DNA of 42,221 nucleotides from Streptomyces sp. NRRL B-1347 (GTDB lineage Bacteria; Actinomycetota; Actinomycetes; Streptomycetales; Streptomycetaceae). The stretch covers positions 1-42,221 of the forward strand of contig NZ_JOJM01000091.1 of assembly GCF_000720325.1 (NCBI RefSeq). The letters run 5' to 3'. The translations under genes were made by a program, and so were the position numbers. This document shows, piece after piece, positions 9,191 to 23,538 of this stretch; positions within the stretch are counted from its first letter, which is position 1, and each line of letters starts with the position of its first letter. The notes beneath the pieces are model-generated. The model did no database searches. It was given only the letters and a program-made list of their open reading frames with translations, and was not told the DNA's origin.

Positions 9191-11358
9191 GTCTCCATCC
9201 CCCGTCGTCGTTCCGGGGCGCCCACGTGCGTGGTCGTCCCGCCTTCACCGGGGGCCCCGGTCGGTGTGGCCCCCTTGCCGTTGAGCGAGTCGCCCGCCGG
9301 TGCGGGCTGCTCGCCTTCGTCCGAGTCTCCCGCCCCCGCGGGGTCCTCGTCTTCCATGATCTCTCCTGTGGCGGTGTTCACGGCGGGGGGCGCCGGGGCC
9401 GCCTGGGCGAAGGCCGCGAGAACGGCTTCCGCCGTCTTGCGGCCGATGCCGGGAACTTCGCAGATCTGGTCGATGGTGGCGGACCTGAGCCGCTTCAGCG
9501 ACCCGAAGTGCTTGATCAGTGTCTGCTTCCTGGACTCGCCGAGGCCGGGCACGGCGTCCAGCGGGCTCGCCTTGAAGCGCTTGGTCCGTTTGGACCGCTG
9601 ATACGCGATCGCGAAACGGTGCGCCTCGTCTCGTACGCGCTGGAGCAGATAGAGGCCCTCGCTGGTGCGCGGCAGCACCACGGGGTCGTCGTCGCCGGGC
9701 ACCCAGACCTCTTCGAGGCGCTTGGCGAGGCCGCAGACCGCGATGTCGTCGATGCCGAGGTCGTCCAGGGCCCGCTGGGCGGCGGCGACCTGCGGCTGGC
9801 CGCCGTCCACGACGACGAGCTGCGGCGGGTAGGCGAACCTCTTGGGGCGCCCGTCCTCCTCGGTCAGGCTCTCCTGGACCTCTTCAGCGGACCCTCCCCA
9901 AGCTCTCGGCTCCGCTTGAGCAGGGGAGACCCCACTCCCCGTCTTCGCCTGCTCCACGAGATAGCGCCGGAAGCGCCGCGTGATCACTTCGTGCATGGAC
10001 CGGACGTCGTCCTGCCCCTCGAAGCCCTTGATCTGGAAGCGGCGGTACTCGCTCTTCCGGGCGAGTCCGTCCTCGAAGACGACCATGGAGGCGACGACGT
10101 CGTCGCCCTGGAGGTGCGAGATGTCGTAGCACTCGATGCGCAGCGGCGCGCTGTCCAGCTCCAGGGCGGTGGCGATCTCCTCCAGGGCCCGGGAGCGGGT
10201 GGTGAGGTCGGAGGCGCGCTTGGTCTTGTGCAGGACGAGCGACTGCTGGGCGTTGCGCGCGACGGTCTCCATGAGGGCCTTCTTGTCGCCGCGCTGCGGG
10301 ATGCGCAACGACACGTTCGACCCGCGGCGCTGGGTGAGCCACTCCTGGACGGGCGCCACGGGGTCGGGCAGCGCGGGGACGAGCACCTCCTTGGGCACGG
10401 CGTCGCCGCGCTCCTCGCCGTACAGCTGCTGGAGCGCGTGCTCGACGAGGTCGGCGGTGGTGACGGCCTCCACCTTGTCGGTGACCCAGCCGCGCTGGCC
10501 GCGCACGCGTCCGCCGCGTACGTGGAAGATCTGGAGGGCGGCCTCCAGCTCGTCCTCGGCGACGGCGATCAGGTCGGCGTCGGTGGCGTCGGCCAGGACG
10601 ACCGCGCTCTTCTCCATCGCCTTCCTGAGGGCGTCTATGTCGTCGCGGAGGCGGGCCGCGCGCTCGTACTCCATCTCCTCGGCCGCGTCCGTCATCTGGC
10701 GCTCCAGGCGCCGGATGTACGTACCGGTGCGGCCGGTCATGAACTCGCAGAAGTCCTCGGCCAGTTCGCGGTGCTCCTCGGCGGAGACGCGGTCCACGCA
10801 CGGCGCGGAGCACTTGCCGATGTAGCCGAGCAGACAGGGGCGGCCGGTGCGGGCGGCGTTCTTGAAGACGCCCGCCGAGCACGTCCGCACCGGGAACACG
10901 CGGAGCAGCAGGTCCACGGTGTCGCGGATGGCCCAGGCGTGGCCGTACGGACCGAAGTAGCGCACGCCCTTTTTCTTCTGACCGCGCATCACCTGCACGC
11001 GCGGGAACTCCTCGTTCATCGTCACCGCGAGGTAGGGGTAGCTCTTGTCGTCGCGGTACTTGACGTTGAAACGCGGGTCGTACTCCTTGATCCAGGTGTA
11101 CTCCAGCTGCAGCGCGGCGGTCTCCGTGGCGACGACGGTCCACTCCACGGAGGCGGCGGTCGTCACCATGGTGGCCGTGCGCGGGTGCAGGTTCGCCAGG
11201 TCCTGGAAGTAGCTGGCGAGGCGCTGGCGCAGGCTCTTGGCCTTCCCGACGTAAATCACACGGCGGTGCTCGTCGCGGAACTTGTAGACCCCGGGCGAGT
11301 CGGGGATCTGTCCCGGCTTGGGGCGGTAGCTGGAAGGGTCCACGACGAAGATCACCAC
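9187..11358 (-). CDS. uvrC: UvrABC excinuclease subunit C, 5' end rebuilt by the inserted element
   Basis: Makes both incisions in nucleotide excision repair. Domains in order are GIY-YIG nuclease (SPGVYKFRDEHRRVIYVGKA), UVR domain (about residues 205-240), RNase H-like 5' nuclease (CYDISHLQG) and C-terminal helix-hairpin-helix pair (VPGLGESRKQTL, VPGIGRKTAEAVL). The host codons begin only at GACCCTTCC (D-P-S); everything upstream of 11340 is element DNA. Possible starts are GTG at 11358, 11355 or 11343; the last replaces the native ATG-GCC exactly (native MADPSS becomes (M)DPSS) and has GGTGATC 6 bases upstream. The coordinates give the longest reading; the true start is uncertain. The orphaned native start codon lies at 23538..23536. 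Confidence 0.93.
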   Translation of the reverse strand: MVIFVVDPSSYRPKPGQIPDSPGVYKFRDEHRRVIYVGKAKSLRQRLASYFQDLANLHPRTATMVTTAASVEWTVVATETAALQLEYTWIKEYDPRFNVKYRDDKSYPYLAVTMNEEFPRVQVMRGQKKKGVRYFGPYGHAWAIRDTVDLLLRVFPVRTCSAGVFKNAARTGRPCLLGYIGKCSAPCVDRVSAEEHRELAEDFCEFMTGRTGTYIRRLERQMTDAAEEMEYERAARLRDDIDALRKAMEKSAVVLADATDADLIAVAEDELEAALQIFHVRGGRVRGQRGWVTDKVEAVTTADLVEHALQQLYGEERGDAVPKEVLVPALPDPVAPVQEWLTQRRGSNVSLRIPQRGDKKALMETVARNAQQSLVLHKTKRASDLTTRSRALEEIATALELDSAPLRIECYDISHLQGDDVVASMVVFEDGLARKSEYRRFQIKGFEGQDDVRSMHEVITRRFRRYLVEQAKTGSGVSPAQAEPRAWGGSAEEVQESLTEEDGRPKRFAYPPQLVVVDGGQPQVAAAQRALDDLGIDDIAVCGLAKRLEEVWVPGDDDPVVLPRTSEGLYLLQRVRDEAHRFAIAYQRSKRTKRFKASPLDAVPGLGESRKQTLIKHFGSLKRLRSATIDQICEVPGIGRKTAEAVLAAFAQAAPAPPAVNTATGEIMEDEDPAGAGDSDEGEQPAPAGDSLNGKGATPTGAPGEGGTTTHVGAPERRRGMET
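11336..11357. other. attL: left junction of the integrated element
   Basis: GGGTC (11336..11340) is repeated at 23528..23532. Directly inside lies AAGATCACCA (11348..11357), the exact inverse of TGGTGATCTT at 23508..23517. uvrC sequence stops and element sequence begins here, and the serine integrase gene starts about 90 bp away. Confidence 0.88.
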
Positions 11359-11443
11359 ACTCTGACAGGCACGCTCGCCGTGCGCTTCTTAGGCTGGTCA
11401 TTGAGGGGTGGGCCCGCAAGGCACGGAAGGACACCCCCCGGTC

Positions 11444-23474: not shown

Positions 23475-23487
23475 GGTCTGTGTCGGA

Positions 23488-23538
23488 TCACCGCGAAGGT
23501 AGAATTATGGTGATCTTGTAGACAGACGGGTCGGCCAT
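23488..23538 (-). pseudogene. uvrC: Orphaned uvrC start: 16-codon remnant
   Basis: The native uvrC ATG (23538..23536) and codons 2-3 remain here as ATGGCCGACCC. After the junction it reads into the element as MADPSVYKITIILPSR and stops. Joined to D-P-S at 11340 it restores MADPSSYRPKPG, the normal UvrC N-terminus. Confidence 0.85.

What the first reader, a model, noticed from the sequence alone, without database searches (positions are those of the whole stretch)
11341..23532. A self-contained, tail-less head factory: candidate capsid-forming phage satellite of Streptomyces
In 12.2 kb the element has a serine integrase, initiator-like gene with iterons, Cro-like repressor, scaffold-like protein, HK97 capsid, connectors, HNH, TerS-like, TerL with all catalytic residues, portal and two neck-type proteins. 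It has no tail tube, chaperone, tape measure, fibre, holin, endolysin, primase or helicase. Structural genes are intact and most overlap at ATGA/TAATG/GTGA junctions, which argues against decay. This is the expected gene set of a satellite that makes its own small heads and takes tails and lysis from a helper, as cf-PICIs do. I recall self-packaging Streptomyces satellites (MiniFlayer group), but do not know of one with this layout in uvrC.
Basis: partly seen in the sequence, partly recalled or inferred. Interest (0 to 1): 0.93.

Follow-up and report, generated by a model that had tools for sequence, protein, structure and literature searches.

The report
Tail-less Streptomyces virus-head satellite family
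A 12-kilobase element inserted in a Streptomyces DNA-repair gene carries the genes predicted to build and fill a virus head but none recognised for a tail, so it is likely a phage satellite that would borrow tails from another virus; two other Streptomyces genomes carry related elements of nearly the same size and layout.

Summary
Window 11341-23532 is one integrated element of 12,192 bp. Its reconstructed attP is symmetric, and the matching empty site, the uvrC start, is uninterrupted in 36 of 36 other same-genus genomes searched. It encodes a serine integrase, an initiator-like protein with iterons, two HTH regulators, HK97-type capsid, adaptor, HNH, TerL, portal, Neck1 and a lambda-gpU-like tail terminator. 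Scaffold, TerS and head closure are weaker calls. No tail or lysis family is among the listed hits, and no unassigned long ORF could hold a tape measure. Two diverged sisters, G083 (12,670 bp) and G479 (12,437 bp), share the head and packaging gene order, use different integrases and sites, and show no tail gene. Seven head genes show purifying selection. The capsid has no tblastn match in 50,697 phage records, so no known phage is its parent. It most likely works like a capsid-forming satellite (cf-PICI, MulchRoom). It is not homologous to MulchRoom or MiniFlayer beyond the portal, and it lacks the head protease listed for cf-PICIs. No helper, particle or excision was observed.

The parts
11336..11340 (.). 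attL core (GGGTC); element-side arm AAGATCACCA at 11348-11357
   Evidence: joined flanks give uvrC codons M-A-D-P-S-S-Y-R
9187..11358 (-). uvrC, 5' end displaced; first codons now supplied by the element (in-frame GTG starts read into D3 of UvrC)
   Evidence: PF08459 6.4e-55; empty site uninterrupted in 36 of 36 other same-genus genomes
11408..13069 (+). large serine integrase (true start may lie slightly downstream)
   Evidence: phrog_95 1.7e-76; PF00239, PF07508, PF13408 above cut-offs
13161..13469 (+). small ORF, unknown
   Evidence: no family at E<=0.1; no PADLOC match
13490..14011 (+). replication-initiator-like protein (HTH_36)
   Evidence: phrog_270 2.7e-6; PF13730 26.4 bits, cut-off 25; 60% identical over its N-terminal part to a G479 protein
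13772..13891 (+). iterons, six copies, spacing 18/18/18/22/22, core GTGCCTAATCTGGGCAC; predicted origin inside the initiator gene
   Evidence: same 17-mer at L034:10962-10978
14425..14485 (+). tRNA-like hairpin cluster (weak)
   Evidence: below gathering: mascRNA E 0.067, tRNA-Sec E 3.8; ARAGORN negative
14628..14849 (+). Cro/C1-type HTH regulator
   Evidence: PF01381 2e-17
14840..15127 (+). small ORF, unknown
   Evidence: no significant family
15120..15464 (+). scaffold-like protein (position and composition)
   Evidence: no family; 54% identical in G083; weak E 0.009 in G479
15636..16517 (+). HK97-fold major capsid protein
   Evidence: PF05065 9.2e-19, phrog_10 4.8e-28; profile matches solved phage capsid chains at 5.2e-5 and 5.4e-4; 86/62/53% to three homologues
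16580..17035 (+). head-tail adaptor Ad1
   Evidence: phrog_137 1.1e-4; G479 homologue 4.8e-7, G083 homologue 9.7e-4
17026..17316 (+). HNH endonuclease
   Evidence: phrog_333 2.5e-22; PF01844 3.3e-10
17309..17680 (+). probable head-closure protein Hc1
   Evidence: phrog_501 E 0.05, 0.057 in G479, 0.082 in G083; 56% identical in G083
17801..17959 (+). small ORF between Hc1 and TerS, similar by eye to L013:11701-11973
   Evidence: no Pfam family, phrog_25739 (unknown function) E 0.024
18117..18392 (+). probable small terminase subunit
   Evidence: Terminase_4 E 0.0066, below cut-off (scanned as 18033-18392); homologues at the same position in G083 and G479
18389..20026 (+). large terminase subunit
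   Evidence: phrog_9 4.7e-59; catalytic motifs invariant in 3 of 3
20019..21416 (+). portal protein
   Evidence: phrog_104 7.1e-78; PF05133 2.3e-24
21416..21709 (+). Neck1 / tail-completion-like (DUF5403); no counterpart found in G083 or G479
   Evidence: PF17395 4.6e-18; phrog_321 1.6e-7
21709..22101 (+). tail terminator, lambda gpU-like fold
   Evidence: phrog_123 9e-12; AlphaFold2 best model pLDDT 76.7; all 4 PDB matches at E<=0.001 are phage tail-cap, connector or tail-terminator chains, TM-scores 0.45-0.55
22707..23474 (+). second HTH regulator at the right end
   Evidence: phrog_10886 8.8e-7; HTH_31 E 0.0043, below cut-off
23528..23532 (.). attR core (GGGTC); element-side arm TGGTGATCTT at 23508-23517

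Best explanation
This is an integrated 12,192-bp element that encodes capsid, packaging and neck proteins (identified by sequence and profile matches) with no tail or lysis gene detected, and it is likely a capsid-forming phage satellite that would fill its own small heads and join them to tails made by a helper siphophage. Shown by the calls: the att sites, the gene content, the intact reading frames, the iterons, and the conservation of the head/packaging block with purifying selection in sister elements. Inferred: the serine integrase inserts and excises the element at the uvrC start. On helper infection or induction the initiator would bind the iterons and recruit replication functions that the element lacks. 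TerS/TerL/HNH would package element DNA into heads small enough for about 12 kb. The element's own Ad1, Hc1, Neck1 and tail terminator would form the neck onto which a helper's long non-contractile tail is mounted. The helper would also supply lysis.
For: Exact att structure: core GGGTC; attP symmetric at 15 of 25 positions about the core (15 or more at only 7 of 20,000 random centres in the element); empty site intact in 36 of 36 other same-genus genomes searched. Head, packaging and connector genes and no tail or lysis hit listed. The only ORFs of 300 aa or more are integrase, capsid, TerL, portal and antisense shadows. Two sisters of 12,670 and 12,437 bp share scaffold-capsid-Ad1-HNH-Hc1-TerS-TerL-portal in the same order, at other sites and with serine integrases only 38% and 24% identical to this one. 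dN/dS against G083 is 0.12-0.40 in the seven head genes where it could be computed. A tail terminator is found in 3 of 3 and its fold matches lambda's. Capsid, Neck1 and terminator have no match in 50,697 phage records. The iteron 17-mer is identical in window and G479. The precedent MulchRoom has small heads and helper-length tails (PMC10690885, Results and Discussion read).
Against: No helper is identified and nothing shows excision, induction or particles. TerS, scaffold and Hc1 are weak assignments. Neck1 has no counterpart found in either sister. No head maturation protease in the window, nor among the G083 proteins scanned; G479 has one. The iterons are not seen in G083. The family is rare, with three elements located. 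No defence gene was recognised among nine proteins apart from HTH-level matches of one G083 regulator. One chance-level 'tail protein' match (E 0.085) appeared on the G083 Hc1 protein. A highly diverged tail gene could escape the profiles, although there is little room for one.
Confidence: 0.76

Rival explanations
1. A decayed prophage: an ordinary temperate siphophage that lost its tail, lysis and replication genes and is now cryptic.
For: Small size, head genes only, no helper known; PMC10023795 (passages seen) discusses small actinobacterial elements as possibly cryptic or as satellites.
Against: Three elements at 60-86% capsid identity share block order and 12.2-12.7 kb size at three different sites; seven head genes are under purifying selection; both att ends are intact; no full-length phage with a related capsid was found.
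Confidence: 0.13
2. A self-sufficient mini-phage whose particle uses an unrecognised, very short adsorption device, comparable to MiniFlayer's short fibres, rather than a helper's tail.
For: MiniFlayer shows that a small-genome satellite can carry its own short fibres (PMC10690885); several small ORFs here are unknown.
Against: Unassigned coding-strand ORFs outside assigned genes are at most 126 aa in the mechanical list, and the four of them that were scanned had no family hit; MiniFlayer's 4,131-bp gene has no counterpart in size; a siphovirus-type tail terminator is kept in 3 of 3 elements; no lysis gene found.
Confidence: 0.05
3. A domesticated packaging element (gene-transfer-agent-like or capsid-based cargo delivery) kept for host benefit.
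For: Conserved head module without tail or lysis.
Against: Own integrase, exact att sites, initiator with iterons, different chromosomal sites in three genomes, rarity among genomes: features of a mobile element, not a fixed host locus.
Confidence: 0.03
4. A satellite whose heads are used only as a decoy or interference device against helpers, not for its own transfer.
For: None direct; satellites commonly interfere with helpers (recalled).
Against: Keeps TerL with catalytic motifs, portal, HNH and neck proteins, most of them shown to be under purifying selection.
Confidence: 0.03

Closest known systems
Capsid-forming PICIs (cf-PICIs), as described in PMC10690885, PMC10803314 and PMC13230959 (passages seen; the founding paper is not held in the library)
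   Same: Own capsid, portal, connectors, terminase and HNH; no tail; integrated; 12.2 kb against a reported cf-PICI average of 14 kb; predicted to take tails from a helper.
   Different: No head maturation protease in the window; serine integrase; initiator plus iterons with no primase or helicase found; its own tail terminator, which is not in the cf-PICI component list seen. Homology to the published cf-PICI set was not tested.
MulchRoom / MiniFlayer satellites of Streptomyces (OQ784832, OQ357865; PMC10690885)
   Same: Streptomyces; 14.8 and 17.4 kb; scaffold, capsid, portal, TerS, TerL, adaptor and an HNH or other endonuclease; low G+C; no primase; MulchRoom has an integrase and long, helper-length tails.
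   Different: Capsid and TerL unrelated by BLASTP (E 0.05 or worse), portal only 19-22% identical; order there is TerS-TerL-portal-scaffold-capsid, here scaffold-capsid first and TerL-portal last; tyrosine integrase (MulchRoom) or none (MiniFlayer) there, serine integrase here; virulent helpers there, unknown here.
Mycobacterium candidate PICIs, including phiRv1/phiRv2-like elements (PMC10654092, section 9 and other passages read)
   Same: Actinobacterial integrated elements with an integrase (some serine) and a phage capsid gene, some with terminase and scaffold; not shown to be mobilised.
   Different: Homology was not tested here; those elements were defined only by integrase plus capsid, some carry helicases and secreted-toxin systems; none was reported at uvrC in the text read.
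Siphophages with phrog_104-type portals (Streptomyces, Mycobacterium, Arthrobacter)
   Same: TerL and portal are distant relatives (34.5% and 31.5% at best among the 40 listed).
   Different: The listed records are about 40-77 kb; no capsid, Neck1 or terminator match.

Membership tests
cf-PICI (components as listed in PMC10690885) | own major capsid, portal and head-tail connectors | tested here: met
   PF05065, phrog_104, phrog_137, phrog_321, phrog_123
cf-PICI (components as listed in PMC10690885) | large terminase subunit and HNH endonuclease | tested here: met
   phrog_9 4.7e-59; PF01844 3.3e-10
cf-PICI (components as listed in PMC10690885) | small terminase subunit | tested here: inconclusive
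   Terminase_4 E 0.0066, below cut-off; position conserved
cf-PICI (components as listed in PMC10690885) | head maturation protease | tested here: not met
   none in window or among the G083 proteins scanned; a phrog_193 'head maturation protease' (Pfam VG15) only in G479
cf-PICI (components as listed in PMC10690885) | no tail genes; tails from a helper | tested here: inconclusive
   absence of tail genes met; use of helper tails not testable
cf-PICI (components as listed in PMC10690885) | induction and mobilisation by a helper phage | not testable with these tools
   needs infection experiments
MulchRoom/MiniFlayer family | homologous capsid, TerL and portal | tested here: not met
   only portal, 19-22% identity; capsid and TerL E 0.05 or worse
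MulchRoom/MiniFlayer family | direct terminal repeats of about 1 kb in virion DNA | not testable with these tools
   only the integrated form is available
MulchRoom/MiniFlayer family | capsid genes but no primase | tested here: met
[quoted passage not shown]
Tail-less head-and-neck family proposed here (window, G083, G479) | shared scaffold-capsid-Ad1-HNH-Hc1-TerS-TerL-portal order, tail terminator, 12-13 kb, serine integrase, no tail | tested here: met
   the G479 scaffold match is weak (E 0.009) and its terminator lies upstream of the capsid

The most novel reading that the evidence does not exclude
A previously undescribed family of Streptomyces head-and-neck satellites, with its own capsid lineage, that carries the particle up to and including the tail terminator. 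On this reading its terminator is the adaptor that caps bare tail tubes of siphophage helpers, so that the element steals unfinished tails rather than finished ones. It replicates from an initiator/iteron origin instead of a primase, and it re-supplies the 5' end or a full copy of the host gene it invades (uvrC, a LysR-type gene, a GNAT gene).
Probability: 0.35. Interest if true: 0.78.

Novelty: new variant of a known kind. Interest (0 to 1): 0.62.

Why it matters
If right, head-making, tail-borrowing satellites exist in Streptomyces in a lineage separate from MulchRoom/MiniFlayer by capsid and TerL sequence. Its head module is compact enough (12.2-12.7 kb in three elements) to study head-size control and head-tail matching. 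The retained tail terminator makes a specific question testable: which neck or tail-cap protein decides whose tail a satellite can use. The serine integrases and their predicted att sites at uvrC and two other genes are also candidate integration tools for Streptomyces.

Tried and rejected
Exact-peptide scans: genome contigs with TerL and the capsid alignment, and viral contigs with the capsid alignment, gave no confirmed relative. The viral-contig scan with TerL gave one distant locus of 29% identity in a 51.6-kb contig (L002), which I do not count as a member. A deletion derivative of a known phage was rejected. A phage-plasmid origin was rejected: best TerL match in plasmids 31.6%. Membership in the MulchRoom/MiniFlayer family was rejected. 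The AlphaFold2 capsid model failed (pLDDT 30.4) and was not used. Of 16 distinct genomes with only weak capsid hits, nine were looked at in a stretch of up to 20 kb (G260, G311, G225, G269, G590, G576, G512, G426, G437): they share at most capsid-, HNH-, HTH- or integrase-level similarity and were left aside; seven were not looked at. My first reading that the G083 left boundary lay near its integrase-side GNAT copy was corrected by the overlap of matches seen. A repeat search within each end separately found no att repeat; the core is only 5 bp. The near-match of Neck1 in L034 (E 0.009, off the head operon and on the other strand) was discarded as chance. A by-eye HNH label for an ORF of G735 was dropped because Pfam gave no family.
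Full report
Boundaries. The window is contig C91 of a 10.23-Mb genome. Its genus is Streptomyces by inference from the named homologues. The element is a low-G+C island, 59.6% against 70.6% and 71.9% in the flanks. Its ends are marked by GGGTC at 11336-11340 and 23528-23532. Joining the flanks gives the start of uvrC (M-A-D-P-S-S-Y-R-P-K-P-G; UvrC by Pfam). 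This joined site is uninterrupted in 36 of 36 other genomes of the same genus searched: 35 matches run 25 or more bases past the join, one runs 8. Seven of the 61 genomes in that call had no match, all from other genera. The reconstructed attP is symmetric about its core, with 15 of 25 positions complementary and perfect TGGTGATCTT/AAGATCACCA arms. Random centres in the element reached 15 or more in 7 of 20,000. uvrC keeps an in-frame element-supplied GTG start; whether it is expressed was not tested.

Gene content. PHROGs and Pfam scans of 20 ORFs, plus one small ORF, give a serine integrase, an initiator-like HTH_36 protein, a Cro/C1-type regulator, HK97-type capsid, Ad1 adaptor, HNH endonuclease, TerL, portal, Neck1 (DUF5403), a tail terminator and a second HTH regulator. 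Head closure (E 0.05), TerS (E 0.0066) and scaffold (no family) are weaker; position and conservation in the sisters support them. No listed hit is of a tail or lysis category; the hit lists of the HTH and HNH proteins were cut at 25. Annotated genes and small ORFs cover 10,225 of 12,192 bases and the largest gaps are 616 and 605 bases. ORFs of 300 aa or more inside the element are only integrase, capsid, TerL, portal and antisense shadows, so there is no room for a tape measure. TerL motifs are invariant in 3 of 3 family members. The best terminator model (pLDDT 76.7; the five models ranged from 49.6 to 76.7) matches lambda tail-cap and tail-terminator chains and a mycobacteriophage connector in the PDB (best E 3.9e-4, TM-scores about 0.45-0.55). 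The capsid model failed.

A family. The capsid search returned 3 relatives besides itself, at 86, 61 and 53% identity, from 4,729 word-sharing candidates in a 5.8-billion-protein collection. The matching TerL search fell from 57% and 48% to 35% after two relatives (scored candidates capped, E<=1e-60). Contexts were obtained for two elements. G083 (capsid 86%, portal 79%, TerL 58%, HNH 71%) has 9 of this element's 10 head/neck genes in the same order, lacking Neck1. Its contig is not the one listed for the 86% protein record, so whether the two are one element is not settled. By comparison with empty sites in relatives, G083's element is 12,670 bp in a GNAT-type gene and carries its own GNAT copy (PF00583 4.7e-14), and G479's is 12,437 bp in the start of a LysR-type gene (PF00126 3.6e-18). 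Both attPs are symmetric at the core (16 of 25), although G479's stretch has a second, off-core centre with 15. No significant tail or lysis hit appeared among 14 G083 and 13 G479 proteins scanned; a 'tail protein' match at E 0.085 on the G083 Hc1 protein is level with its Hc1 match and taken as chance. Neither has an unassigned ORF of tape-measure size; the largest is a 368-aa HTH regulator in G083. Both integrases are serine recombinases by Pfam and only 38% and 24% identical to this one, so head blocks and integration modules have reassorted. The 53% relative (Kitasatospora albolonga) could not be placed in context.

Selection and exchange. Against G083, dN/dS by Nei-Gojobori is 0.19 capsid, 0.21 Ad1, 0.13 HNH, 0.21 Hc1, 0.14 TerL, 0.12 portal and 0.40 terminator; TerS was saturated, scaffold and Neck1 were not computed. 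Against G479, values are 0.20-0.58 in five genes, several near saturation, with Ad1 and HNH saturated. Synonymous divergence of the capsid from G083 (0.53) is far below that of the other six genes (0.99-2.62), which suggests recent exchange of the capsid gene between elements.

Replication. Six iterons lie in the 3' part of the initiator gene. The 17-mer GTGCCTAATCTGGGCAC recurs exactly once in G479's element, in a four-copy repeat array beside a related initiator, and has no exact match in the viral-contig collection. G083 has a different initiator-like gene and no such array. A shared initiator/iteron origin is inferred for two of three elements.

Distribution. Close capsid matches occurred in 2 of 392 genus genomes (own and G083), 2 of 394 family genomes (own and G479), 3 of 391 order genomes plus one weaker at 4.9e-18 (G735), and 0 of 70 in a second genus of the family at E 1e-15 (without a positive control). 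The samples overlap. Weaker hits in 8 further genomes and 10 (16 distinct) are taken to be other capsid lineages; nine of them were looked at.

Possible helper. Contig C19 of the same genome carries a prophage with tape measure, major tail protein, tail-assembly chaperone, portal, capsid, head maturation protease, DNA polymerase and primase (ten proteins scanned, one without a hit). Its portal is 28% identical to this element's over part of its length. It could be a resident tail donor; nothing tests that.

Comparison. cf-PICIs are described in PMC10690885 as encoding capsid, head maturation protease, portal, connectors, TerS, TerL and HNH. The protease is missing here, so the element is said to work like a cf-PICI but is not filed as one. 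MulchRoom and MiniFlayer share only a portal at 19-22% and have a different gene order. Mycobacterium candidate PICIs with integrase and capsid, some with serine integrases, are published and not shown to move (PMC10654092, section 9 read). PMC10023795 (passages seen) notes that small actinobacterial elements could be satellites. A search for serine integrase, Streptomyces, uvrC and attB found no paper holding all four terms (69 held three, 15 were listed, none of those with uvrC). Searches listed no paper on this family, judged from titles and abstract starts.

Verdict. The element is real, complete by its ends, and one of at least three related elements. The satellite mechanism is the best reading at 0.76. 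It adds a separate Streptomyces lineage to a known kind of system.

Noticed in passing
L013 (G083) 5353-5850, 5097-5323 and 17981-18206: The G083 element splits a GNAT-type gene and carries its own divergent complete GNAT copy at its left end (PF00583 4.7e-14), apparently replacing the gene it breaks.
   Followed up: partly
L034 (G479) 1718 and 14155: The G479 element inserts near codon 14 of a LysR-type regulator gene and leaves a GTG start behind a purine-rich stretch (by eye).
   Followed up: partly
window 15636-16517 against L013:9716-10591: The capsid gene is far less diverged at synonymous sites (dS 0.53) than the other head genes (0.99-2.62), a sign of recent capsid exchange between elements.
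   Followed up: partly
window 14425-14485: A tRNA-like three-stem structure with a T-arm-like hairpin in the 616-bp gap between initiator and Cro genes; below Rfam gathering (mascRNA E 0.067, tRNA-Sec E 3.8), not called by ARAGORN, fold z-score only -1.69.
   Followed up: partly
L018 and L051 (G000:C19, about 14-40 kb): A siphophage prophage with tape measure, tail, DNA polymerase and primase genes in the same genome; candidate resident helper.
   Followed up: partly
L067 about 16247-16936 and L068 169-1482 (G735:C123): A distant capsid gene with a serine-integrase-like match a few kb away and no obvious tape-measure ORF in between; may be a different capsid-carrying element.
   Followed up: no
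L034 3030-3698: A protein named head maturation protease by PHROGs (phrog_193, 7e-32) and VG15 by Pfam (5.7e-22) after the portal in the G479 element; not found in the window or among the G083 proteins scanned.
   Followed up: partly
window 22707-23474 and L013 16827-17933: An HTH regulator near the right end in two elements, seemingly unrelated beyond the HTH; possible master repressors or cargo.
   Followed up: no
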